Shown here piece after piece: positions 11,255-27,304 of a stretch of DNA of 34,556 nucleotides (its first letter is position 1; every line of letters begins with the position of its first letter). The stretch spans positions 1 through 34,556 of IMG/VR virus record IMGVR_UViG_3300042691_021411. One strand, written 5' to 3'. The position numbers were made by a program, and so were the translations under genes. The notes beneath the pieces were generated by a model. The model was not told the origin of the DNA. It saw only the letters and a list, made by a program, of their open reading frames with translations, and ran no database searches. The DNA is from a virus.

Positions 11255-12163
11255 ATGGCACTTGGAACATATGGTATTGTAAGACCCGCAGATGTATCAC
11301 CAGAAGATGTTGATATATATTTACATTATACGGAATCTAGAGATGTTACAAACAACTTTACATTAAAAAAATTAAATGCTTCAAATATATTAACACCATA
11401 TTTTCATAATGCAAACACAGGTGGTAATGCGGATTTAGAAATTCTTGGTGGATTATACAATTTAAAACTACCTGTCACTGAATTTACAAGAAAGGGTATT
11501 TACACTTTAATGATAAGACCCGCAGAGATAAGAACAACAATTTTAGATTGTGGGGTTTTATCCGCACTACCAAATGTAAAAGGACTTATTGTTGATATAA
11601 ACCAAGTACCTAGCCAGTTTAGAAATAAATTCGTTAATCAAGGGTTAGTTGGGTTTAGAGTTGAATATCTTAATGATAATGGAACAAAAATTACTAATTT
11701 TTATAGAATTGTAACATCATCTTTTTACTGTGAACCTGTAATTAGCGATCAAACAAATACTTCACAAAAGGCAATACGATACCGATACGTAGATACTCCG
11801 ACAGATTTATTATTCTTAACTCTTTCACCTACATCTGCACCAACAAACAAACCAACAGCAACACCTTTTATTGGTCAACCTAACCAGAATATTATTATTA
11901 CAAATACCTTTTTCAACCCAATTACAATTGATATTCAAATGGCTGAACACGATATAGATACATTAGCAATTGCTCTTTACGGTAATCAAACTAAATCTAT
12001 GGAAGATGGTATCTACACTATGTACGACACTTCAGGTAACATCTATAAACAATACAACTTATTTGAAATTAGGGATAATTTCAATGAACTACTTTATGAG
12101 GTTAGACAAGATAGAGGAAGTAACATTGATTTTAGTAAAAACTTTACAAATATTATTAGTTAA
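11255..12163 (+). CDS. Virion structural protein, baseplate block, unrecognised
   Basis: A 302-residue protein preceded by AAAAA and a TATTTATA element, with no Shine-Dalgarno. It starts MALGTYGIVRPADVSPEDVD. A Thr/Pro-rich linker (SPTSAPTNKPTATP, about 190-203) splits it into an N-terminal beta-rich part and a C-terminal part containing a long DIDTLAIALYGNQTKSMEDG segment. It ends in a TAATG overlap with the 1235-aa gene, so the two are probably made in fixed proportion. No family recognised; a structural role is inferred from context. Confidence 0.5.
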   Translation: MALGTYGIVRPADVSPEDVDIYLHYTESRDVTNNFTLKKLNASNILTPYFHNANTGGNADLEILGGLYNLKLPVTEFTRKGIYTLMIRPAEIRTTILDCGVLSALPNVKGLIVDINQVPSQFRNKFVNQGLVGFRVEYLNDNGTKITNFYRIVTSSFYCEPVISDQTNTSQKAIRYRYVDTPTDLLFLTLSPTSAPTNKPTATPFIGQPNQNIIITNTFFNPITIDIQMAEHDIDTLAIALYGNQTKSMEDGIYTMYDTSGNIYKQYNLFEIRDNFNELLYEVRQDRGSNIDFSKNFTNIIS

Positions 12164-15100
12164 TGGCTAAAAAGAAATTTCAATATCCACCGGCACCTCC
12201 TGTAGGTAACGACACACCATTTGATAGTATTGTTGGTATACAACAAACAACAGGCGGTGGGTTAACTTTAGGTACTTTTGAATTTACTAGAGGCATATAC
12301 GAAAAGGTTAATAGAAAATTTGATCAAGGGATATTCTCTAAAAAATACAATTTAGAAAATTTAGAGATTACAGACGTTGCTGAGACCAAAAAGTTAATAC
12401 AAAAAAACTTTAAAGTTTATCCTAATTTCGATATATCGCAAGTAACAAGTTTTACTTTATACGGTTCATTACAAAAAAGAATATCAACATCAGTAACAAA
12501 AATAATTAACTATTTTCCTGCAGCATTAGAAGTTTATAGTGCAACAACAAACTTAACAACAGGTCTTACCGTAACAAACATTGTCTATGACCCTATAGAA
12601 GATGAGACAGAATTAGAAGTAAACGCAGCATTTGCAAGAAACCCTTTTGAAATTGATTATAGTATTAATTCTGTGAGAAATATTGAAGTTAGACCGATGA
12701 AAGTTTCTAAGTATAGGGACTTAACTAACGAATTTACAAATTACTCTTTATGTGTCGGAAACGTAGATAATGAATTTCAAATACTTGAATTAGAACCAAC
12801 AGATAAAGTTGGAAGTGGTTATATTTTTATGGTAGTTAAAGGAAATCCATTTTCCGGACAAAACGATAGTACAGAAACTGTTATTATTAAACCAAATAAA
12901 ATGAAAACCCAAGAAATTTTAAAAAATGATTTCGATGAGGTTGAAAAATTTTTATTAAATACCGAAACATTCCCTAAATATACCGCATCTTTTAGTTATC
13001 CAGAATATTCTGATGACGGAGCTTATGTTACAAAAATAAGAAAAATAACTTGGACATTAGATGGTTTATGGAATTTAGATATTATATCATCAAACTTTGA
13101 AACGTATTTGGATTCACTTAATTTAGTTTGTGAAAATTTAGATGAATTTAAAACAAACTTAATTTCTAGATTCCTTATAACAGGATCGTTAAAGGAATTT
13201 GATACTTCTGACCAAAGAATGGAGAAGGTATTTCAAATTTATGGTAGAAGTTTTGATGAGGTAAAAAAGTTTATAGATGCTTTAGCCAATATGAATTCAG
13301 TAAATTATAAAGTTCAAAACGATATACCATCTGTTCTTTTAACTAATTTGGCTCAAACACTAGGGATGAATACTAACATCTCACCTATCAATAATGAAGA
13401 CTTATTAAATTCACTTTTTAAAGTACCCGATCAAAGCAGTTATCAAGGCCAATCACAAGATTCAACACCACAAGAACTTAATTATCAATATTATAGAAAT
13501 TTAATACTAAATTCTGCTTACATGTTCAAAACAAAAGGAACTAGACAGTCTTTAGAATATATAATGAGATTTATTGGGGCACCTGAAGCATTAACAGAAT
13601 TTAATGAGATTGTTTATTTGGCCGACACTAAAATTAACGTAGATGACTTTAAAGAAGAGTATGTTAATATAAGTGCTGGATCGGTCTATGTTGAAACACC
13701 AGTATTAGACCCAACAAATGTTTTTTCAATTCAAGGGGTTACATATACTGGATTTACAACTGATGGAGTAATAGAAAATAATTTATTTGGAGAAACAGAC
13801 TTTCCAATAGACGATAATGGTTATCCTAAAACACCAAGAACAACTGGTGATTATTTTTTTCAAAAAGGATCTGGATGGTTTGAACAAACACCAAAACATA
13901 GATCACCACAAGAAGTTGATTTAGAAAATTCAGAACTTAATCAAAACAACCCTTTAGTTATCACAAAACTAAAACCTTATAGTTTTGGACAAGAATTTTT
14001 AGATAGATATAGAAAGTTTCCTTTTTTAAATAAAGGTTATACAATAACAAAGATTTCAGATAACCAAAAGTCTTGGCCGTCAACTTCAACAGGAGTTAGA
14101 AAAAACGATGTAAACTTCAATGGTGTAAATTATACCGTACAAGATGACAGATTGGTAATCAACTCAAAAAACATAGAATTAAACGTAAATGTTGGACAAG
14201 GTTTGATATATGATGTTTGGGATATGTCTGTTAAATTTAATTACCCAATACCAAATTCAGGATTAACAAGTCCATACCCATATCCCGGAGCAATTGATTG
14301 GACATTTGTTAATCCAAAACCAAAAGAAAAAACGTTTTTTGAATTTGCTCAAACATTTTTTAATAATTTAATAAATGTAAGAAATAGACAATATATTAAT
14401 GATGGTAAAACGGGAGGTTATCCAGCATTACAATCAATATATTGGAAATACCTTCAATCTGAAGAAACCGTAGGTATACCATCAAATAAGTTTACTTATC
14501 AAAAAATGATTGATTATACTTTAGGTTTAGGAAATCATTGGCAAAGGCTTTTGGAACAAGTAGTCCCTGCAACTACGCTTTGGTTAACAGGTGCAAAATA
14601 CGAAAATTCAATTTTTCATAGACAAAAGTTTGTATATAGGAGACAGAGAGGTTGTGTATTTATACCTGTTGAATGTATACCTTGTGAATATAATGGTCAA
14701 GTATTTGCATATGACTGTATTGATCAAACCCTAACTTGTAATTTAAGTAATATAACATCATCAACAGGTGCGGTTGCTTTAAACTCCACATTACAAAACT
14801 TTTTACAGTCTCAGGGCGTTACTACTCAACAATGTGACACAAATAGTATTGTTTCAAATTGGTTTATTGATTGTAGATTAGATAATGATATATTAATACA
14901 AGAAAATTTTTATACAGGGTACGGACCTAACGGATATCCAACACAATCTGAAATAATTAACGCGATTAATGATAAGTTAGTTGGGCTTTATGATTACGGG
15001 CTAAATTATTATTTGGCGGGTAATACCCTGACTGTTAGTAATTCAACATGTTATGATGATTTTACAAATAAGACATTATATATAAACATAGGGGTTAACA

Positions 15101-15870
15101 TTGATATTAATTGTGATAACACGCCAACACCTACCCCAACACCAACTCCAACTCCAACATCTACACCTGTCCCTGGATCATATGTAACTAAATTCGCTCA
15201 ACCAGGATTAATCCAATTTGGTGGTGTTTGGCCCTTACCTAGAACATATTCATATACTTTTACACTTGTTGGTGCGCCAAATGATGTATTAACAATAGAA
15301 ATGAAAATGCCTTACACTTTTGGTTGGAACGTAACAACAGCTATAGATTCGGTTATATATCCACACGGAGTTACCACCACTTTTAACGTGACACTTAATT
15401 CGTCTGGAACTAAATCATTTGTATTAAGTGTTTCGGGAGACACAACTCAAGCATCAAGTACCGTTGGTCAGATAAATCATTTATTCAGAATAATATCATC
15501 AAGTTTAGGTACACCAATAAGTACGTCAGCATTTAGGGCTAATAGAAATACTTCAACCTCAGGAGGACCAATACCATCAGAAGCACATATTGGACTATTA
15601 AATATAAGTGCTACAACAAGTGGGGATTCTTGTAATAATTTTTTACCTGAAACAATTTATAGGATAAATACTAATAATATAAATGTGGGATCAAGAGTTT
15701 TTTCAGGTGCCACTGGAAATATGCCGGTTAATGGAAATAATAATTGGGTTTGTTTTGTTAGGTCTAACCAACCAAATAAACAAACAATTAGTGGAAATTT
15801 AATTTTTGAATCTAAAAGGGCTGTACAAATTGACAGTGCTGGGTATGTAATAAACGTCGTACCATGTTAA
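12163..15870 (+). CDS. Tail protein I-like (P2 gpI / gp7-type) with adhesin-like C-terminus
   Basis: A 1235-residue multidomain protein. Residues about 340-480 resemble the phage tail-protein-I family (P2 gpI; T4 gp7 and TssG are the functional equivalents). The segment LILNSAYMFKTKGTRQSLEY followed by IMRFIGAP (about 446-475) matches its helical 'KGT...L' motif. Residues about 855-985 form a Cys-containing region that closely resembles the C-terminal region of the next gene's product. A Pro-Thr tract (987-1004) then links to a ~230-residue C-terminal beta-rich domain. The likely reading is a wedge protein whose C-terminus projects outward as an adhesin. The gpI-like part is moderately supported; the fused C-terminal layout is seen directly. 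Confidence 0.6.
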   Translation: MAKKKFQYPPAPPVGNDTPFDSIVGIQQTTGGGLTLGTFEFTRGIYEKVNRKFDQGIFSKKYNLENLEITDVAETKKLIQKNFKVYPNFDISQVTSFTLYGSLQKRISTSVTKIINYFPAALEVYSATTNLTTGLTVTNIVYDPIEDETELEVNAAFARNPFEIDYSINSVRNIEVRPMKVSKYRDLTNEFTNYSLCVGNVDNEFQILELEPTDKVGSGYIFMVVKGNPFSGQNDSTETVIIKPNKMKTQEILKNDFDEVEKFLLNTETFPKYTASFSYPEYSDDGAYVTKIRKITWTLDGLWNLDIISSNFETYLDSLNLVCENLDEFKTNLISRFLITGSLKEFDTSDQRMEKVFQIYGRSFDEVKKFIDALANMNSVNYKVQNDIPSVLLTNLAQTLGMNTNISPINNEDLLNSLFKVPDQSSYQGQSQDSTPQELNYQYYRNLILNSAYMFKTKGTRQSLEYIMRFIGAPEALTEFNEIVYLADTKINVDDFKEEYVNISAGSVYVETPVLDPTNVFSIQGVTYTGFTTDGVIENNLFGETDFPIDDNGYPKTPRTTGDYFFQKGSGWFEQTPKHRSPQEVDLENSELNQNNPLVITKLKPYSFGQEFLDRYRKFPFLNKGYTITKISDNQKSWPSTSTGVRKNDVNFNGVNYTVQDDRLVINSKNIELNVNVGQGLIYDVWDMSVKFNYPIPNSGLTSPYPYPGAIDWTFVNPKPKEKTFFEFAQTFFNNLINVRNRQYINDGKTGGYPALQSIYWKYLQSEETVGIPSNKFTYQKMIDYTLGLGNHWQRLLEQVVPATTLWLTGAKYENSIFHRQKFVYRRQRGCVFIPVECIPCEYNGQVFAYDCIDQTLTCNLSNITSSTGAVALNSTLQNFLQSQGVTTQQCDTNSIVSNWFIDCRLDNDILIQENFYTGYGPNGYPTQSEIINAINDKLVGLYDYGLNYYLAGNTLTVSNSTCYDDFTNKTLYINIGVNIDINCDNTPTPTPTPTPTPTSTPVPGSYVTKFAQPGLIQFGGVWPLPRTYSYTFTLVGAPNDVLTIEMKMPYTFGWNVTTAIDSVIYPHGVTTTFNVTLNSSGTKSFVLSVSGDTTQASSTVGQINHLFRIISSSLGTPISTSAFRANRNTSTSGGPIPSEAHIGLLNISATTSGDSCNNFLPETIYRINTNNINVGSRVFSGATGNMPVNGNNNWVCFVRSNQPNKQTISGNLIFESKRAVQIDSAGYVINVVPC
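15121..15174 (+). repeat. Pro-Thr coding repeat tract 1
   Basis: A run of CCAACx/ACTCCA-type hexamers encodes alternating Thr-Pro (residues ~987-1004 of the 1235-aa protein). It separates the domain shared with the neighbouring gene from the terminal domain. Low-complexity DNA of this kind is prone to slippage, so tract length may vary between relatives. Confidence 0.8.
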
Positions 15871-15921: not shown

Positions 15922-15954
15922 TATTTATATAATAAAGTAAATTTTTAAATGGCG
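15892..15954 (+). repeat. Duplicated gene leader, copy 1
   Basis: This leader and the one at 22654-22715 share a 17-nt block (15892-15908) and a 22-nt identical block (15919-15940) holding the TATTTATA element, then T-rich sequence and ATGGCG. It precedes the 808-aa SprB-repeat gene. The match is long enough to indicate duplication or recombination rather than chance A/T similarity. Confidence 0.75.
15922..15929 (+). promoter_or_regulatory. TATTTATA octamer, candidate late promoter element
   Basis: An exact copy of the recurring octamer inside duplicated leader copy 1, ending 19 nt before the ATG of the SprB-repeat gene. Conservation of the flanking bases with the leader at 22684 makes this one of the better-supported sites. 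Confidence 0.5.
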
Positions 15955-18375
15955 TATTGTATATCAGGTTTAACTAATGGTGTTTATTTATACACAGATT
16001 GTTGTGGAATATTACAAAGAGGGGCATCAGTTGGTGAAAGTGTTTGTATAGATAGTGCGTTTTCTGGCAGTGCTTCAGGTATTGTCATATATTCGGCAAT
16101 TACTTGTACTGAAAATTGTAATGGAGGACCATTAGGTTATAGTTTTACAGTTACAGGAACTTGTTACGCCGGTTCAGGAACTACAGTCATTGAAGTTTAT
16201 AATGGACAACCTGTTTACACCATTAATAATGTTATTCCCGGAACTTTAGGTTCACAAACCGGGTTTGGTCCATTCACTTTTAGTGGTTTAAGTGCCGGTA
16301 CATACACATATAGAATTAATGATTCGTCAGGAGGGGTTAATGAAGACATATACGTTAACGTAATTGTAAGTGATTGTTTTAGGACTTTTGCTTATGGTGC
16401 GTCAGGAACCACTTGTGGTTTAGATAATGGTTCTTTTTATGTTAATTGTGATAGTTCGGCGTCACCTTATACTTTTCTTTTGTATGATACTGTAAATTTA
16501 CTTAGGGTAGAAACATCAGCTACATTACCATATCAGTTCACTAATTTAAGTGCTGGAACTTACTATGTAACTGTAGTAAATTATGGTAATGTTTCTGCAT
16601 ACACTGGTACTGTAGTAATAATACCTAGCGTCGGTGTTGATTTTGGTTTTTGGAAAGTAGATACATCGACTTGTGTTGTTGATAAAGGAAAGCTCGCGGT
16701 CACAGGAGTAACCGGTACAGGTCCTTTCACATATTTATGGTCTAATGGTGAAACAACATCATTAATTACAGGATTAACACAAGGATCGTACACTTGTACT
16801 GTTACTGATAGTTTAGGTTGTCAAACAACAAAAAGTGAATTAATCGGTGTGGTAGAACCATTGGGTGTTGGGTTAGTCACATCTGTTGAACCATCATGTT
16901 TTGCTTCAGACGGTTCATTAACATATACTATAACAGGAGGTTCTAGACCTTTATATTTTTCAGCAAACACAGGACAAGTTGGATACACATTCGACGATAC
17001 AATTGTAATAAATAATTTGAGTAGTGGATCTTATATCACTACTGTTAGAGATGCCAATTTTTGTGAAATAGTTTTAAATGGGTTTGTTACACCACAAAAT
17101 GGGTTTACGGTCGTAGACACTATAATTACAAACTCTAATTGCAATCAACAAAATGGTAGTGTTAATGTGCAATTGGCAGGACAAAACGGATTTTATACTT
17201 ACGTTTTATCAGGTCAATCAAGCGGCACTATATTAACAAGTACGAGTCAAAATCAATCACACACATTTAATAATTTACCAAACGATAATTATATTTTAGC
17301 GATTTCAGGATCAGGTACAAATTGTTTTTATAATTCAACACTAACAATAAATTCAGAGCAAAAGTTTACTATTAGTGCAACAACTACAAATGCAACTTGT
17401 AATCAATATAATGGACAAATACAAGTTAATGTTTCTTCTGGTTATACGGCACCTTTAGATTACTTTTTAAGTGACGGTCAATCAAATATTAATAGCCCAT
17501 TTTCTGCGAATACTTTTTATAATCTTAATGCGGGTACCTACACTTTGAATGTTGTTGACGATTCTGGTTGCTCAGTTTCTGAAACAATAACAATCGCAAC
17601 AACTCAAGGAGTTGTATTTTCGGTAACAGAGACAAATTGTACTAATGGTAGTAATGGAGAGGCTTTAGTTACAATATATCAAGGATCTCCACCATATAGT
17701 TATTTTTGGTCAAATAACATACCTGACGATCAATCGGGGTTTCAAATACAAGGATTGAGTGCCGGTACATACACTGTTCAAGTAATTGACAACAATGGGT
17801 GCTCATCTACACAAACATTTCAAATTGTATGTAATGGGTTACTTTATACTGGTTATGAAATTTTTACAATCTGTAAAGATCAATTTACAACAACAACAGG
17901 GACTCAAAGAGGGTTTGATGAAATGTTAAACGAGGGTTATATGGACATTACATCAGGGTATACCGGATGTAGTTTTAATAGTGCTGAATTTATTGCTCAA
18001 ATAAATATAAATGGAACGGCATTTACCCAAAGTTTTTATACTGCAACCACTCTAAACGATGTGCCACAAGATAGTTTATGGCAATCAGCGATAGAAAGTA
18101 TGTTGTCGGGTATTACAGAAGTTGGTGAATATACTATTGATATACTAAATAACACATTAGAAATAAAGTCTAACTGTAGTGGGGACTTTGATCCTTTAGC
18201 TGACGCACCATTTAGTTTATCGTTACAAATAATTTATGATGTTACTTGTACTGAAAACGTTACACCGACTCCAACACCAACCGTTACGCCAACACCAACT
18301 CCAACCGTTACACCAACTCCGACACCAGTAATTTGCAATATGTCTGGATACACATTTGAAATAAACCAACCATAA
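15949..18375 (+). CDS. Tail adhesin with about seven SprB-type repeats
   Basis: An 808-residue protein made largely of tandem SprB-type repeats at roughly 85-138, 158-225, 250-293, 330-378, 408-465, 495-546 and 577-624. The clearest are GPFTYLWSNGETTSLITGL followed by GSYTCTVTDSLGC, and SPPYSYFWSN followed by GLSAGTYTVQVIDNNGCSS. SprB repeats are known from the flavobacterial gliding adhesin SprB and similar cell-surface proteins, so this is a phage surface protein using host-adhesin architecture. The N-terminus (GVYLYTDCCG) is a Cys-containing cap with no signal peptide. Residues about 660-765 match a region of the upstream 1235-aa protein. A Pro-Thr tract (772-794) and short tail CNMSGYTFEINQP follow. 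Likely a tail fibre or receptor-binding protein. Confidence 0.7.
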   Translation: MAYCISGLTNGVYLYTDCCGILQRGASVGESVCIDSAFSGSASGIVIYSAITCTENCNGGPLGYSFTVTGTCYAGSGTTVIEVYNGQPVYTINNVIPGTLGSQTGFGPFTFSGLSAGTYTYRINDSSGGVNEDIYVNVIVSDCFRTFAYGASGTTCGLDNGSFYVNCDSSASPYTFLLYDTVNLLRVETSATLPYQFTNLSAGTYYVTVVNYGNVSAYTGTVVIIPSVGVDFGFWKVDTSTCVVDKGKLAVTGVTGTGPFTYLWSNGETTSLITGLTQGSYTCTVTDSLGCQTTKSELIGVVEPLGVGLVTSVEPSCFASDGSLTYTITGGSRPLYFSANTGQVGYTFDDTIVINNLSSGSYITTVRDANFCEIVLNGFVTPQNGFTVVDTIITNSNCNQQNGSVNVQLAGQNGFYTYVLSGQSSGTILTSTSQNQSHTFNNLPNDNYILAISGSGTNCFYNSTLTINSEQKFTISATTTNATCNQYNGQIQVNVSSGYTAPLDYFLSDGQSNINSPFSANTFYNLNAGTYTLNVVDDSGCSVSETITIATTQGVVFSVTETNCTNGSNGEALVTIYQGSPPYSYFWSNNIPDDQSGFQIQGLSAGTYTVQVIDNNGCSSTQTFQIVCNGLLYTGYEIFTICKDQFTTTTGTQRGFDEMLNEGYMDITSGYTGCSFNSAEFIAQININGTAFTQSFYTATTLNDVPQDSLWQSAIESMLSGITEVGEYTIDILNNTLEIKSNCSGDFDPLADAPFSLSLQIIYDVTCTENVTPTPTPTVTPTPTPTVTPTPTPVICNMSGYTFEINQP
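18262..18330 (+). repeat. Pro-Thr coding repeat tract 2
   Basis: Encodes three Thr-Pro blocks separated by Thr-Val (TPTPTPTV pattern) near the C-terminus of the SprB-repeat protein. It follows the same domain that precedes tract 1 at 15121, so domain plus tract behave as one movable unit. Confidence 0.8.
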
Positions 18376-20928: not shown

Positions 20929-21372
20929 ATGATAATAGAAATTTCAGGAGTTACTGGCGGACAATCACCATATGATATTTTTTTATGTACAACCGCAAAT
21001 ACGTCATGTTTTTTTATATCAGGTAATACGTTTATACCACCAAATATTGTTATAAATAGCGAATATTATTTTCCAAATGAGGAGGTACTACTTCTAAGAA
21101 TAATAGATTCTAATGGTTGTGTTTTTGACGAAGTACAAAATTGTTTACCACCTACAACCGCAACATGTGTTTGTAAAGAATATAAAGTAATATGGGGACA
21201 CCCGGGTTTAATTACATTTTCATATGATCCTTGTTGTCCTAGCGGGGTAACCACAACCACAACGATTAACTTCCCAACCGTATTTTCATTTTCATCCTCA
21301 ACAACACCAAACCTAATTGCTGGTTTTGGTGGAATAATAACACAAATAGGTGATTTATGTCCTTGTACTTAA
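20929..21372 (+). CDS. Mini-protein with a SprB-like module plus Cys-rich C-terminal domain (147 aa)
   Basis: A 147-residue protein that opens like its neighbour at 20621 (ISGVTGGQSPYDIFLCTTAN, then LLRIIDSNGCVFDEVQNCLP). It continues with a second ~70-residue Cys-containing domain (CVCKEYKVIWGHPGLITFSY, then DPCCPSG, ending GDLCPCT). The second domain is probably a small beta-sandwich tied by paired cysteines. No signal peptide or membrane helix. Its position between fibre genes and the glycosyltransferase supports a tail-associated role, but the function is unknown. Confidence 0.5.
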   Translation: MIIEISGVTGGQSPYDIFLCTTANTSCFFISGNTFIPPNIVINSEYYFPNEEVLLLRIIDSNGCVFDEVQNCLPPTTATCVCKEYKVIWGHPGLITFSYDPCCPSGVTTTTTINFPTVFSFSSSTTPNLIAGFGGIITQIGDLCPCT

Positions 21373-21408: not shown

Positions 21409-22644
21409 ATGAAAATTTTTGTTCAAATAGCGTCTTACAGAGACCCTGAACTTGTACCAACAATTAAATCATGTATAGATAACGCAAAAAACCCAAACAA
21501 TTTAGTTTTTGGTATTTGTAGACAATTTAATAAAGATGATAAATTTGATGACCTTAGTGAATATGAAAATGATAAACGTTTTAGAATTATAAACATATCT
21601 TTTGAAAATGCTAAAGGAGTTTGTTGGGCAAGAAATAAAGTTCAACAATTATATAATGGTGAAGAGTATACTTTACAGATTGATTCCCATATGAGATTTG
21701 AAAAAAATTGGGATGAAGAGATGATAAATATGATTAAACAACTTCAAAAAAAAGGTTATAAAAAACCATTATTGACCGGTTATGTTTCATCATACAACCC
21801 TCAAAACGATCCAAACGGTAGAGTAAGGGTTCCTTGGCGTATGGTTTTTGATAAGTTTATACCTGAAGGTGCTGTATTCTTTTTACCCGAAATAATACCA
21901 AATTGGGAAACATTGAGTGAACCTGTACCTGCTAGATTTTACTCGGCACATTTCTGTTTTACGTTAGGTCAATTTTCAAAAGAAGTTCAACATAACCCTG
22001 ATTTTTATTTTCACGGGGAAGAGATATCGATAGCCGTAAGGGCATTTACTCACGGGTACGATTTATTCCACCCACATAAAGTTTTAATATGGCACGAGTA
22101 TACAAGAAATGGTAGAACAAAACACTGGGATGATCAAAAAGAATGGTGGAAATCAAATAATAGGGCACATGACTTGAATAGAAAATTATTCGGTATGGAT
22201 GGTAATGATTTAATGGATCAGGGGGTATATGGGTTTGGTAAAGAAAGATCATTAAGAGATTATGAAAAATATGCTGGTTTATTATTTTCTAAAAGGTTAG
22301 TACATCCTGAAACATTGCAAAAAAAATACCCACCAAATAGTGAATATAAAAATGAATTAGATTGGGAAAAAAGTTTTTTAAAAACTTTTGAATATGAAAT
22401 TAAATTAAAAAAAGAAGATATTACTGAAAATGAATATGATTTTTGGGCAGTAACATTTCATGATGAAACAGATAGGGAAATATTTAGAAAAGATGCTGAT
22501 AATAACGAAATCAATATCATATTAAAAAATCAAAATTTAAATATCAAAAGAAATTTTCCCGTAGATATAACCCCTAAATATTGGACCGTCTGGTTCCACT
22601 CAAAAAATAAAGGTTGGTTGAATAGAGTGACAGGTCAAATATAA
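21409..22644 (+). CDS. GT60-like (GlcNAc-type) polypeptide glycosyltransferase
   Basis: A 411-residue enzyme of the glycosyltransferase (GlcNAc) family (PF11397, CAZy GT60). Seen motifs are ASYRDPELVPTI (about 8-19), CWARN (72-76), LQIDSHMRF with the D92-S-H94 metal/nucleotide site typical of this family in place of DxD, HGEEISIAVRAFTHGYD (202-218), and WHEY (228-231). Known members transfer GlcNAc to protein Thr (trypanosome mucin type) or hydroxyproline (Dictyostelium Skp1). The last ~85 residues (from ITENEYDFWAVTFHDET) form an extra beta-rich domain of unknown role. The gene lies among tail-adhesin genes whose products carry long Thr-Pro tracts, which are plausible acceptors. Donor and acceptor are inferred; modification of host surface or a different sugar donor cannot be excluded. 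Confidence 0.78.
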   Translation: MKIFVQIASYRDPELVPTIKSCIDNAKNPNNLVFGICRQFNKDDKFDDLSEYENDKRFRIINISFENAKGVCWARNKVQQLYNGEEYTLQIDSHMRFEKNWDEEMINMIKQLQKKGYKKPLLTGYVSSYNPQNDPNGRVRVPWRMVFDKFIPEGAVFFLPEIIPNWETLSEPVPARFYSAHFCFTLGQFSKEVQHNPDFYFHGEEISIAVRAFTHGYDLFHPHKVLIWHEYTRNGRTKHWDDQKEWWKSNNRAHDLNRKLFGMDGNDLMDQGVYGFGKERSLRDYEKYAGLLFSKRLVHPETLQKKYPPNSEYKNELDWEKSFLKTFEYEIKLKKEDITENEYDFWAVTFHDETDREIFRKDADNNEINIILKNQNLNIKRNFPVDITPKYWTVWFHSKNKGWLNRVTGQI

Positions 22645-22653
22645 ATAAAACAT

Positions 22654-22715
22654 AAAAATAATTTAATAAAATAGATGTTCGATTATTTATATAATAAAGT
22701 AATTTTTAGATGGCG
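22654..22715 (+). repeat. Duplicated gene leader, copy 2
   Basis: Counterpart of the leader at 15892-15954: a 17-nt identical block at 22654-22670, then the 22-nt identical block at 22681-22702, ending in ATGGCG. The middle 10 nt differ. It precedes the 536-aa adhesin gene. Confidence 0.75.
22684..22691 (+). promoter_or_regulatory. TATTTATA octamer, candidate late promoter element
   Basis: An exact copy within duplicated leader copy 2, ending 18 nt before the ATG of the 536-aa adhesin gene. It sits at nearly the same spacing as in copy 1. Confidence 0.5.
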
Positions 22716-24320
22716 GATATTATATTAAGTAGTTGTTGTTATACGCAAATAGTTTATAGTGCAACCACTTGGGCCGGGTTAACAGCGCCAGGTACCGTAT
22801 TCAACATTACGGGTGATACAACAATTATTGATGGGTGCTATACTGTAGTTCTTGCTGGAACACCAACAACCACAACATCTTTAGTTGGTACTGCAACAAT
22901 AGTTTCTGGGTGTACACACCCTAGTTGTGAGATTTGTTGTGAAGAATCGGTTTGTGTGGATATACCTATTAATTCATATAGTGGATACAATGGAACATAT
23001 AGTTTAGTTGGAAGTTACAACGCAAAACCATATTGGACTGGAGGAACTGACGTAGGTTATATATTTTATGACTCAACAAAGTGGTGTATAGGAGATGGAT
23101 TAGGGGGTACTGTATATTTCTTTGGATCTTTTCCTACAAATAGTGTGTGTCCCGACTTTAGCTCAACAATTTATTACGAAGGTGTATGTACACCTCCGCC
23201 AACCACAACACCGGATCCTTGTAGTATATTAGATTTTGATGTTTTACTTGAATGTGAAATACCAACTCCGACACCAACTCCGACACCAACTCCGACACCA
23301 ACTCCAACTCCGACACCAACTCCAACTCCGGACCTTTGTTCAGCATTTACTGCCGATATAAGTTTTGTTGAGGTAACACCAACCCCTACACCAACACCAA
23401 CCCCTACACCAACACCAACCCCTACAACAGGTGTAACACCATCTGCTGATACTGTTACGTTTATAATTGACAGTGGTTATTTTGTTTGTTCGGCAGTTAA
23501 GGAATTGGTTGATTGTGAAACATCTGAAATTTATTATGTTGAAGATCCGTTAATTTATAATGGTTCAGGACTCACAACAGGAACGACATTCTTAGCTCAA
23601 TTAAATGACTTTAATTCAGATCAGATTCAATGTGTTACATATACACAAACACTTTCTAAACTTTCACCAACAAGAATTCTAAAACAAATATTTGATGTTT
23701 ATAGTGGTGGTTGTGGTGAATGTGTTGTACCTATTGTCGATCCTTGTTCGGCATTTACAGCATCAATAAGTAGTACTGAAATTATACCAACACCTATTAC
23801 TTACCCTCCAGGAACAACATTTATATTTACTTCATGCACAACTAACTCTATGGTTGTACAAACGGCATATCCTCCTACAAATATTGTTACAGAAGATATA
23901 TTGAAGAACACTTCAGGTCAATGTTACACATATATTGGAAACTTTATAAACTACATACCACCTGTTGGATTTATTATTGCAAATATCGATATGTTTACGG
24001 CAACAACACAAACAGTTTATAATGATTGTATAGATTGTTTAGCACCAACACCAATATTATTACCTTATGTTCAGTGGAGAGGTAAAGCGGAATATTCATT
24101 AGCTTGTCCTGTTTGTGAATTAACTGACTTTGGTGGTGATTATAGTTGGTATACCTCATCTGCAAGTACAACACTACAAACAGGAGTTTATGTTTATGAA
24201 GACTCTAATTTAACAATACCACTTTATGTTGATTACATAAAATACTTAAATAAAATATATGCTGTCGATTCACAAGGAAAAATTACAGAATATTGTACAG
24301 TAAATGGAAATTGTACATAA
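22710..24320 (+). CDS. Modular Cys-rich tail adhesin with two long Pro-Thr tracts
   Basis: A 536-residue protein built of small modules. A Cys module ending CEICC spans about 8-77. A beta-rich module ([16 protein letters not shown]..., about 92-165) follows. A short unit, D-x-C-S followed by PTP, recurs three times (starting at residues 169, 208 and 344). Pro-Thr tracts occupy about 185-207 and 223-240. Two more Cys modules end GCGECV (~340) and DCIDC (~443). A terminal domain contains [15 protein letters not shown]. No signal peptide or membrane segment. The architecture is that of an extended phage adhesin with stiff Pro-Thr spacers. The glycosyltransferase gene is directly upstream, making the Thr-rich spacers candidate glycosylation sites. 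Receptor-binding role inferred. Confidence 0.6.
23262..23331 (+). repeat. Pro-Thr coding repeat tract 3
   Basis: Tandem 12-mers (CCGACACCAACT and close variants) encode about 23 alternating Pro-Thr residues in the 536-aa adhesin. Near-perfect units suggest recent expansion by slippage or unequal recombination. Confidence 0.85.
23378..23428 (+). repeat. Pro-Thr coding repeat tract 4
   Basis: Tandem near-identical 18-mer units of CCTACA/CCAACA/CCAACC encode about 17 alternating Thr-Pro residues. Codon choice differs from tract 3 only 50 nt upstream (CCT/CCA with ACC/ACA here, against CCG/CCA with ACA/ACT there), so the two tracts expanded separately. Confidence 0.85.
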
Positions 24321-26069: not shown

Positions 26070-27080
26070 ATGAGCAGACAACAATTTTATTCTAGTAATT
26101 CAGTTGAAACAGTAGTTTTTCAAAAAAGTGGTGCAACCTCATCTCCAAGCGCTAGTATAGTTAGTGGTGGTAGAAACGGTTTATGGAAAGTTTTTAATGG
26201 TTCAGAAACAAAGCTCATTAGACTAACATTAAACACATATACAGGATTTACAAGTGACACTAACATAAGAAATATTGAGTTTAAGACAAATACTTTAAAA
26301 ATAATAACCACAAATGTTGTCCTTAATAATATTTTTTATGGTAATATAGATTTAACAAAATTTAAAAAATTAAGTTTTTTACAAATGACTAACAATAATG
26401 AATTAACGGGTATTACGTTACCTTATTCAGATGAGGTAACTACCAATATTCTTATATCTGCAAATTCAAAAATAAAAACACTTGATTTGTCATCTTTAAG
26501 TAATCTTGCGGGGGCTGTGGATATTAGTAATAATGCGACATTAAGTGCGGTCACCAACCCTACTTCAAATCAATACGTAAATGAATATAGAATACATAAT
26601 AGTAATATAACCGGAACTTTAAATATGTCCACCTTTACCAATCTTGGTGCGTCAAGCTCAGGTGTTGCATACTCAATTTTTACTTGTTTTAATAACCCTA
26701 ATCTTACTAATGTTATTTTTCCAATAAGTACCAATTTTTTTAAAAATACGGGTGATAATCCATTTAGTTGTTGTTTTAGTTTGTTTGGTTGTAATTTAGA
26801 TTACGTGGACTTTACAAAACTTTCTGGTGCAACATTAGTGTCTGGGTTTAGTACGCCTAGAATAGAATTATATAATAACAACATGTCGGCAGATGATGTT
26901 AATCACATACTTGTTGATTTTAGTGGAAACGCCACATATAACCCAACGGGTTGGTCAGACGTTAGATTAAATATTGGTGGTACAAATGCGAATCCTGATT
27001 CATCAAGCGGTGGCTATAATGGTCTTGCGGCCATTTCATTTTTAACTGGTTCGCCATATAATTGGACAATAACATATTAG
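26070..27080 (+). CDS. Leucine-rich-repeat-like tail protein
   Basis: A 336-residue protein beginning 2 nt after the fibre gene. The middle (about 95-240) shows irregular LRR-like spacing: LSFLQMTNNNELTGITLP, IKTLDLSSLSNLAGAVDI with SNNATLSAV, and FTCFNNPNLTNVIFP, consistent with a solenoid of short strands and Asn-ladder turns. A further repeat-like piece is IELYNNNMSADDVNHIL. No signal peptide or membrane helix. Such LRR solenoids are common recognition surfaces in Bacteroidota proteins, and here the tail gene context suggests receptor contact. The repeat call is by eye, since the units are irregular. Confidence 0.5.
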   Translation: MSRQQFYSSNSVETVVFQKSGATSSPSASIVSGGRNGLWKVFNGSETKLIRLTLNTYTGFTSDTNIRNIEFKTNTLKIITTNVVLNNIFYGNIDLTKFKKLSFLQMTNNNELTGITLPYSDEVTTNILISANSKIKTLDLSSLSNLAGAVDISNNATLSAVTNPTSNQYVNEYRIHNSNITGTLNMSTFTNLGASSSGVAYSIFTCFNNPNLTNVIFPISTNFFKNTGDNPFSCCFSLFGCNLDYVDFTKLSGATLVSGFSTPRIELYNNNMSADDVNHILVDFSGNATYNPTGWSDVRLNIGGTNANPDSSSGGYNGLAAISFLTGSPYNWTITY

Positions 27081-27082
27081 AT

Positions 27083-27304
27083 ATGATTTGGAGATTAATT
27101 TATAACAACATAAACGTAGTACATTTGTTTGAAACTAATGATATTACTGTTACACCCCATCAAATTTTTGAAGGAAATACGCAAGAAGAGTGTTTTGATA
27201 AAATTGATGAATTAAAAATAACATATTACTACCCTTTAAATGAAAATGAAATATTATTATTCAGTGGAGGAACAAGAACGATAATAAATAAAGATGATAT
27301 TTGA
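27083..27304 (+). CDS. Small hypothetical protein (73 aa)
   Basis: A 73-residue protein. The start is taken at the ATG at 27083, 2 nt after the upstream stop, in preference to an in-frame TTG at 27062 that would overlap the previous gene by 19 nt. Sequence starts MIWRLIYNNINVVHLFETND and includes EGNTQEECFDKIDELKITY. No domain recognised, no signal peptide. Its stop overlaps the next gene's ATG (TGATG), so the two are probably translated together. It could be an accessory or assembly factor for the adjacent adhesin, but nothing in the sequence proves it. Confidence 0.5.
   Translation: MIWRLIYNNINVVHLFETNDITVTPHQIFEGNTQEECFDKIDELKITYYYPLNENEILLFSGGTRTIINKDDI

What the first reader, a model, noticed from the sequence alone, without database searches (positions are those of the whole stretch)
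21409..24320. GT60-like glycosyltransferase beside Thr-Pro mucin-like tracts: possible self-glycosylating tail
A PF11397/GT60-type enzyme gene lies inside the adhesin array, directly before a gene whose product has two long alternating Thr-Pro tracts, with two more tracts in genes upstream. Known GT60 enzymes add GlcNAc to protein Thr in mucin-like regions or to hydroxyproline. That suggests the phage decorates its own fibre linkers with sugars to stiffen them, protect them from proteases, or disguise them. I know of no described phage system with this pairing.
Basis: inference. Interest (0 to 1): 0.8.

Follow-up and report, generated by a model that had tools for sequence, protein, structure and literature searches.

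The report
Phage tail mucin-type glycosylation locus
A family of large bacterial viruses carries, in the middle of its tail genes, a swappable set of sugar-attaching enzymes beside tail proteins with mucin-like Thr-Pro linkers, which suggests that these viruses sugar-coat their own tails in the way animals make mucus proteins.

Summary
In detail: a 411-aa PF11397/GT60-type glycosyltransferase (21409-22644) lies 65 bp before a 536-aa tail protein ("TPP", 22710-24320) with (TP)11 and (TP)8 tracts; two genes upstream carry shorter tracts. The pairing is not a one-off. In 68 TPP relatives from IMG/VR (44 after dereplication), every TPP has a TP tract and is directly preceded by a glycosyltransferase gene: GT60 in 64, a non-homologous GT29-like enzyme in the same slot in 4. 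The slot often gains further enzymes (HtrL_YibB, GT34, others). In other phage lineages the gene just upstream of GT60 is enriched for Thr/Ser/Pro-rich tracts (29/48 versus 32/112 other upstream genes). The predicted GT structure matches polypeptide GalNAc-transferases best. The isolated phage XacN1, with an orthologue beside a TP-tract tail-region protein, is reported to have virion glycoproteins. Best reading: cytoplasmic mucin-type O-glycosylation of tail linkers, by a locus that works like a serine-rich-repeat adhesin glycosylation locus. Shown: gene pairing, enzyme replacement, fold, disordered linkers. Inferred: donor sugar, acceptor residue, benefit. Novelty: new variant of a known kind.

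The parts
21409..22644 (+). GT60/PF11397 glycosyltransferase (411 aa): soluble GT-A domain plus a C-terminal beta domain, no signal peptide or membrane segment evident
   Evidence: PF11397 E=5.2e-70; phrog_24687 E=2.8e-159; AF2 model pLDDT 91.6; best PDB folds are polypeptide GalNAc-transferases, E=3.3e-10
21682..21690 (+). codons of D92-S93-H94, the DxH-type metal/UDP motif; invariant in 50 homologues
   Evidence: alignment A4; sits just after strand 87-91 of the model; identity with the DxH motif of GalNAc-Ts is from general knowledge
22710..24320 (+). TPP: tail protein (536 aa, 28 Cys) of small beta domains joined by Thr-Pro linkers; proposed acceptor
   Evidence: AF2 pLDDT 74.5 with disordered linkers at 174-260 and 342-362
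23262..23330 (+). TP tract 1, residues 185-207, proposed mucin-like glycosylation domain
   Evidence: position conserved in the 22 aligned TPPs, split by a domain insertion in L039
23376..23423 (+). TP tract 2, residues 223-238
15121..15156 (+). TP tract in the C-terminal part of the 1235-aa tail protein (12163-15870); possible second acceptor
   Evidence: TRF 15124-15167
18262..18327 (+). three short TP blocks near the C-terminus of the SprB-repeat adhesin (15949-18375); homologues carry longer tracts, up to 19 dipeptides
20929..21372 (+). J147 gene directly before the GT; homologues in other phages carry TP tracts at this -1 position, the window copy has only T/S-rich stretches

Best explanation
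The locus is a phage-encoded, cytoplasmic mucin-type O-glycosylation module of the tail. The GT60 enzyme, a relative in fold of the enzymes that start mucin O-glycans, attaches a HexNAc (most likely GlcNAc, alpha-linked) to Thr/Ser of the disordered Thr-Pro linkers of tail adhesins, first of all the TPP protein encoded next to it, before the tail is assembled. In many relatives further glycosyltransferases encoded in the same slot extend or cap the sugar, and in some a GT29-like transferase takes its place. The glycosylated linkers would be stiff, protease-resistant spacers, and the variable sugar coat would change how the virion is recognised. Shown: gene pairing and its conservation, enzyme replacement in a fixed slot, fold and invariant DSH motif, linker disorder, protein-level retention of Thr. 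Inferred: donor sugar, acceptor residue, timing, benefit.
For: 1) 68/68 TPP-anchored loci (44/44 after dereplication at 90%) have a TP tract and a GT gene directly before TPP: 64 GT60, 4 GT29-like (PF00777, E 1e-17 to 3e-22) on the other strand. 2) The enzyme is swapped while the slot stays: L033/L038 share 65-66% of TPP with the window but only 44% of GT60; L003 shares 52% of TPP but 71% of GT60; L030/L031 share 73-74% of TPP with GT29 instead. 3) The slot gains further GTs: YibB-type, GT34, others; other lineages add GT10, GT25, GT34 and methyltransferases. 4) In ten large TPP contigs 28 of 31 (TP)5 tracts lie within 10 kb of GT60, 4.9 expected. 5) In 48 dereplicated non-TPP loci the gene before GT60 is T/S/P-rich in 29, against 32/112 other upstream genes, p=6e-7; still p=1e-3 at 78% dereplication. 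6) The fold is closest to polypeptide GalNAc-Ts; known GT60 enzymes are polypeptide alpha-GlcNAc-transferases (PMC8724618; PMC9472816). 7) XacN1, with a 44% identical orthologue and TP tracts in the neighbouring 3314-aa ORF325, is reported to have at least two virion glycoproteins (PMC5852040). 8) The closest bacterial GT60 homologues (Saprospiraceae, Bacteroidia, Jiulongibacter) sit divergently beside probably exported proteins with T/S/P mucin-like domains.
Against: No chemistry is known for any phage GT60; no sugar has been shown on any TP tract. About 40% of non-TPP GT60 loci lack a T/S/P-rich tract in the preceding gene and half lack a (TP)4-type tract within 8 kb. Three of five large non-TPP contigs (G011, G013, G016) have no (TP)5 tract at all, and in the two that do co-localisation is not significant (1 of 5, p=0.3). 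Across all bacterial homologues T/S/P tracts near GT60 are not significantly enriched (10/58 against 10/102, p=0.13). Conservation in TPP phages is partly shared ancestry. Which XacN1 proteins are glycosylated could not be read.
Confidence: 0.58

Rival explanations
1. The GTs glycosylate virion proteins, but at other sites (folded tail or capsid domains, collagen-like fibres), and the TP tracts are only plain extended linkers.
For: GT60 also occurs beside tail genes without TP tracts, including a collagen-repeat protein in L023/L226; TP tracts are AF2-disordered linkers that need no sugar to act as spacers; mycobacteriophage virion glycans sit on capsid and tail-tube subunits (cited in PMC12619734).
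Against: Enrichment of T/S/P tracts precisely in the gene before GT60; Thr, not just any residue, is retained before Pro; nearest fold family and known GT60 enzymes act on mucin-like Thr-rich peptides.
Confidence: 0.22
2. The enzymes remodel host surface glycans (O-antigen, capsule) during infection, for superinfection exclusion or release.
For: PHROGs files the family under moron/host takeover; some cassette enzymes belong to LPS-type families such as GT25.
Against: Soluble enzyme without membrane part; no flippase or lipid-carrier transferase among the slot genes scanned; fixed position between two tail genes in 68/68 loci; fold closest to polypeptide transferases; virion glycoproteins reported in XacN1.
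Confidence: 0.1
3. The enzymes glycosylate hypermodified phage DNA.
For: DNA glycosylation is the best-known job of phage GTs (PMC12619734); the YibB fusion has a weak match to a TET-associated GT (E=0.005).
Against: No Tet_JBP family member found in 16 large contigs, although nothing rang in the controls either; the locus sits among tail genes, not DNA-metabolism genes; the fold is closest to polypeptide transferases.
Confidence: 0.04
4. The slot is a hot spot for cargo genes; GTs and TP tracts are neighbours only because tail regions collect both.
For: Gene content of the slot and of the flanking adhesin genes is variable.
Against: In 44/44 dereplicated loci the slot before TPP holds at least one recognisable glycosyltransferase; replacement by GT29 keeps the function class; the -1 gene effect is stronger than in other upstream genes of the same loci.
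Confidence: 0.06

Closest known systems
CAZy GT60 polypeptide alpha-GlcNAc-transferases (Trypanosoma cruzi TcOGNT1, Dictyostelium Skp1 GlcNAc-transferase), Pfam PF11397
   Same: Same Pfam family (E=5e-70), soluble GT-A enzyme as in the Skp1 enzyme, related to mucin-type initiators; the T. cruzi enzyme makes GlcNAc-alpha-Thr in mucin-like proteins (PMC9472816, PMC8724618)
   Different: Phage-encoded, in a tail operon, extra C-terminal beta domain, activity and donor untested; no prolyl hydroxylase partner in most genomes
Serine-rich repeat protein (SRRP) glycosylation loci of streptococci, staphylococci, lactobacilli (GtfA/GtfB plus variable extending GTs)
   Same: Priming GT plus a variable number of extending GTs encoded beside a low-complexity Ser/Thr-rich adhesin; GlcNAc first (PMC6973325)
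   Different: GtfA/GtfB are unrelated enzymes acting as a two-protein complex; SRRPs are exported by accessory Sec, phage tails are assembled in the cytoplasm
Xanthomonas phage XacN1 glycosyltransferase ORF334 and virion glycoproteins (PMC5852040)
   Same: 44% identical GT, cassette with carbamoyltransferase and YibB-like enzyme next to baseplate genes and the TP-tract protein ORF325; at least two virion glycoproteins reported
   Different: Different phage lineage and host; authors did not link enzyme, tract and glycoprotein; no TPP homologue found in the phage collection
Mycobacteriophage virion glycosylation (Freeman et al. 2023, cited in PMC12619734; paper itself not held)
   Same: Phage-encoded GTs sugar-coating virion proteins and altering immune recognition
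   Different: Glycans on C-termini of capsid and tail-tube subunits, not on mucin-like linkers; enzymes not compared here
Moraphages, Bacteroidota jumbo phages with four core glycosyltransferase families (PMC12619734)
   Same: T4-like baseplate genes, aquatic, large genomes, GTs as core genes, predicted Bacteroidota hosts
   Different: No context, acceptor or TP tracts described there; membership of the window in that lineage was not tested

Membership tests
GT60 / PF11397 glycosyltransferase | Significant match to the family profile over the catalytic domain | tested here: met
   E=5.2e-70, profile positions 95-349 plus an N-terminal piece
GT60 / PF11397 glycosyltransferase | GT-A fold with DxH-type metal motif conserved | tested here: met
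   AF2 pLDDT 91.6; D92-S93-H94 invariant in 50 sequences; PDB top hits GalNAc-Ts
GT60 / PF11397 glycosyltransferase | Transfers GlcNAc from UDP-GlcNAc to Thr (or hydroxyproline) of a polypeptide | not testable with these tools
   needs an enzyme assay
Skp1-type hydroxyproline glycosylation pathway | Partner prolyl-4-hydroxylase | tested here: not met
   PF13640 found in 1 of 16 large relatives only; other hydroxylase families not searched, host enzymes possible
Mucin-type polypeptide GalNAc-transferase (GT27) | Sequence homology to GT27 and C-terminal ricin-type lectin domain | tested here: not met
   Profile search of PDB sequences found no match up to E=10; similarity is of fold only; C-terminal beta domain not identified
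SRRP-type adhesin glycosylation locus | Priming GT plus variable extending GTs adjacent to a Ser/Thr-rich repeat adhesin | tested here: met
   six slot architectures beside TPP
SRRP-type adhesin glycosylation locus | GtfA/GtfB pair and SecA2/SecY2 export genes | tested here: not met
   no such genes among the neighbours scanned; so it works like one but is not filed as a member
Phage virion glycosylation system | Glycan present on a virion protein and lost without the phage GT | not testable with these tools
   only indirect: XacN1 virion glycoproteins reported (PMC5852040)
Phage DNA-glycosylation system | Base-oxidising partner (TET/JBP) in the genome | tested here: inconclusive
   no PF12851 in 16 contigs, but no control genome rang either

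The most novel reading that the evidence does not exclude
GT60 plus a Thr/Ser/Pro-rich protein is a general prokaryotic and phage mucin-type O-glycosylation system in the cytoplasm, used on phage tails, on exported Tat-type mucin-like proteins of Bacteroidota and perhaps on contractile injection systems. The phage versions exchange the priming and extending enzymes at one fixed slot to vary the glycan of a fixed tail acceptor.
Probability: 0.3. Interest if true: 0.88.

Novelty: new variant of a known kind. Interest (0 to 1): 0.72.

Why it matters
Glycosylation of phage virions is known in few cases, and mucin-type O-glycosylation is usually regarded as a eukaryotic trait. Here a widespread phage family (at least 576 GT60 matches in IMG/VR) keeps a glycosyltransferase locked to tail proteins with mucin-like linkers and swaps the enzyme for unrelated ones while the acceptor gene stays. 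If true it explains what Thr-Pro repeats in many phage tail proteins are for, gives a glycan-variation route to change virion recognition, adds a possible evolutionary relative of the eukaryotic mucin pathway, and offers enzymes for cytoplasmic O-glycosylation of Thr-Pro peptides in bacteria. It is directly testable, for instance on the isolated phage XacN1.

Tried and rejected
Hydroxyproline route (Skp1-like): only 1 of 16 large contigs has a PF13640 gene, so put aside. TET/JBP DNA modification: none found, but the control did not ring, so only weak evidence. Sequence search of the PDB with the GT profile gave no hit (one search gave only a chance match); the link to GalNAc-Ts is by fold alone. 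Bacterial GT60 loci as a whole: enrichment of T/S/P tracts not significant, so the claim is confined to phages and the closest bacterial homologues. Burkholderiaceae GT60 follows a MrkD-like fimbrial adhesin, but that adhesin has no T/S/P tract: adhesin association yes, tract association no. Isolated-phage collection: no relative of TPP or of the 735-aa tail protein. Literature: no held paper pairs PF11397/GT60 with phages or Thr-Pro tails with GTs. DNA slippage as sole cause of the tracts: rejected because synonymous codons vary while Thr is kept.
Full report
WHAT IS THERE. The window is a 34.6-kb virus record from a myovirus baseplate/adhesin region: gp25-like and gp6-like wedge proteins, then large tail proteins, one with SprB repeats. 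The GT gene 21409-22644 matches PF11397 (E=5.2e-70) and phrog_24687 over its whole length. It starts 36 bp after a small Cys-rich tail gene (J147) and ends 65 bp before the TPP gene. TPP has (TP)11 and (TP)8 tracts; two upstream genes have shorter ones.

THE PAIRING IS A PROPERTY OF A PHAGE FAMILY. A search anchored on an upstream tail protein, with no reference to the GT, gave 48 relatives in which the order tail genes - J147 - GT - TPP recurs wherever the contig reaches far enough, with a few rearranged cases such as L062. A search anchored on TPP alone gave 68 loci. All 68 TPPs hold at least one tract of four or more dipeptides and all 68 have a GT gene directly upstream: 64 GT60 and 4 a 195-200-aa GT29-like gene on the opposite strand (PF00777 matches for three of them, the others by identity). 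After removal of TPPs more than 90% alike, 44 loci show six architectures: GT60 alone 13; GT60 plus a 265-aa unassigned gene with a GT-A-like EDD motif (by eye) 12; GT60 plus YibB 10; GT29 alone 4; GT60 plus DUF3431, two unassigned genes and YibB 3; GT60 plus GT34 2 (families). The GT29 contigs are 30-53 kb fragments, so a GT60 elsewhere in those genomes cannot be excluded. PF11397 was found in all 16 large (90-304 kb) relatives searched.

THE ENZYME IS SWAPPED, THE SLOT STAYS. Relative to the window, L033 and L038 have 65-66% identical TPP but only 44% identical GT60; L003 has 52% TPP and 71% GT60; L030 and L031 have 73-74% TPP and GT29. This discordance indicates repeated replacement of the enzyme at a fixed place. 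That is hard to explain by shared ancestry alone and points to a lasting need for a glycosyltransferase beside TPP (inference).

BEYOND THE TPP FAMILY. Among the best 80, those without TPP have GT60 at the head of a cassette with YibB, GT25, GT34, GT10, GT1, FkbM/CmcI methyltransferases or carbamoyltransferase, inside or beside tail genes. Half of these have no (TP/SP/VP)4 tract within 8 kb. With a broader mucin-like measure (20 residues with at least 14 T/S/P and 3 Pro), the gene directly before GT60 is positive in 29 of 48 dereplicated loci, against 32 of 112 other upstream genes and 23 of 295 downstream genes (Mann-Whitney p=6e-7); the effect holds at dereplication to 85%, 78% and 72% GT identity (p=1.5e-5, 1e-3, 1.2e-2). 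(TP)4 in the -1 gene: 13/48 against 7/112, Fisher p=6e-4. In ten large TPP contigs 28 of 31 (TP)5 tracts lie within 10 kb of GT60 where 4.9 are expected; in two non-TPP contigs 1 of 5, and three more non-TPP contigs have none.

ENZYME. The model of the GT (pLDDT 91.6) matches polypeptide GalNAc-transferases as the 18 best PDB folds (1xhb E=3.3e-10, structures with mucin peptides among them), ahead of TarS, chondroitin polymerase and RmlT. D92-S93-H94 is invariant in 50 homologues, as are H223, H229 and E230; GalNAc-transferases use a DxH motif plus a later His for the metal (general knowledge; not superposed here). No sequence similarity to any PDB chain was found. GT60 enzymes are described as polypeptide alpha-GlcNAc-transferases related to the mucin initiators but lacking the ricin domain, cytosolic on Skp1 in Dictyostelium (PMC8724618), and making GlcNAc-alpha-Thr in T. 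cruzi mucins (PMC9472816).

ACCEPTOR. In the TPP model the tracts are disordered (pLDDT below 50 at 174-260 and 342-362) between beta-rich domains: linkers. Thr precedes Pro in 89% of 1373 dipeptides while Thr codons vary at the third base. A pure spacer would tolerate Ala, Glu, Lys or Val; retention of Thr fits an O-glycosylation need (inference).

INDEPENDENT SUPPORT. Three isolated phages hold orthologues: XacN1, CM1, RAS14. XacN1 has the GT60-carbamoyltransferase-YibB-like cassette facing a 3314-aa protein (ORF325) next to baseplate wedge genes (the YibB-like assignment of ORF330 is by eye); ORF325 carries SPSPTPTP, SPTPTPTP and [13 protein letters not shown]14's counterpart SPTPSPTP. The XacN1 authors report at least two virion glycoproteins and suggest the phage GTs make them (PMC5852040); the supplementary figure could not be opened, so the proteins are unknown here. 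Among bacteria, the three closest Bacteroidota homologues (L230, L231, L235) have, divergently beside GT60, a protein with a Tat-like RR signal (by eye) and a long T/S/P domain; in Jiulongibacter it lies between two family members. Over all bacteria the tract effect is not significant.

INTERPRETATION. Most likely: cytoplasmic mucin-type O-glycosylation of tail linkers, extended by lineage-specific enzymes; in logic like SRRP loci with a priming GT and a variable number of extending GTs (PMC6973325), though not a member of that family. Steps shown: pairing, replacement, fold, disorder, Thr retention. Steps inferred: donor, acceptor, timing, benefit. Rivals (other virion sites; host surface; DNA; chance neighbourhood) are kept with lower weights.

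VERDICT. The chemical claim is untested. Interest 0.72; new variant of a known kind.

Noticed in passing
L235:7942-15142 (Jiulongibacter sediminis): T/S/P mucin-like protein with Tat-like signal between two PF11397-family genes, near nucleotide-sugar epimerase, UDP-glucose dehydrogenase, carbamoyltransferase and an FkbM-YibB fusion: a possible bacterial mucin-type glycosylation locus in an isolate.
   Followed up: partly
L230:8504-11248 and L231:2684-4870: Same divergent pair (Tat-like signal, mucin-like domain, GT60) in Saprospiraceae and Bacteroidia MAGs; in L230 the C-terminus looks like a type IX sorting domain (by eye).
   Followed up: partly
L253:10001-15178 (Azospirillum lipoferum); L260:6388-9993 and L261:6387-10001 (Sphingomonas): GT60 near a tail sheath gene with a Thr/Pro-rich insert, and directly after baseplate-like proteins (by eye) with Pro/Thr tracts: contractile injection systems may use the same pairing.
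   Followed up: partly
L268:8847-11365 and about ten similar loci (mostly Burkholderiaceae): GT60 directly after a MrkD-like fimbrial tip adhesin; no T/S/P tract in the adhesin.
   Followed up: partly
L237:9488-9916 and L240:9155-9871 (Gemmatimonadota): Gene before GT60 looks like a PqqD-type domain with, in L240, a T/S/P-rich C-terminus.
   Followed up: no
L062 contig (G011:6137-8300): Two GT60 genes in tandem beyond the tail region of a phage whose usual slot is rearranged.
   Followed up: no
L023:12171-13439 and L226: GT60 with a GT4-FkbM fusion and a collagen-repeat protein, no Thr-Pro tract: a possible different acceptor.
   Followed up: no
window:24655-26067 and 26070-27304: Relatives of the 470-aa, 336-aa and 80-aa genes occur on either side of the GT-TPP pair in different relatives, so these adhesin genes are shuffled within the region.
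   Followed up: no
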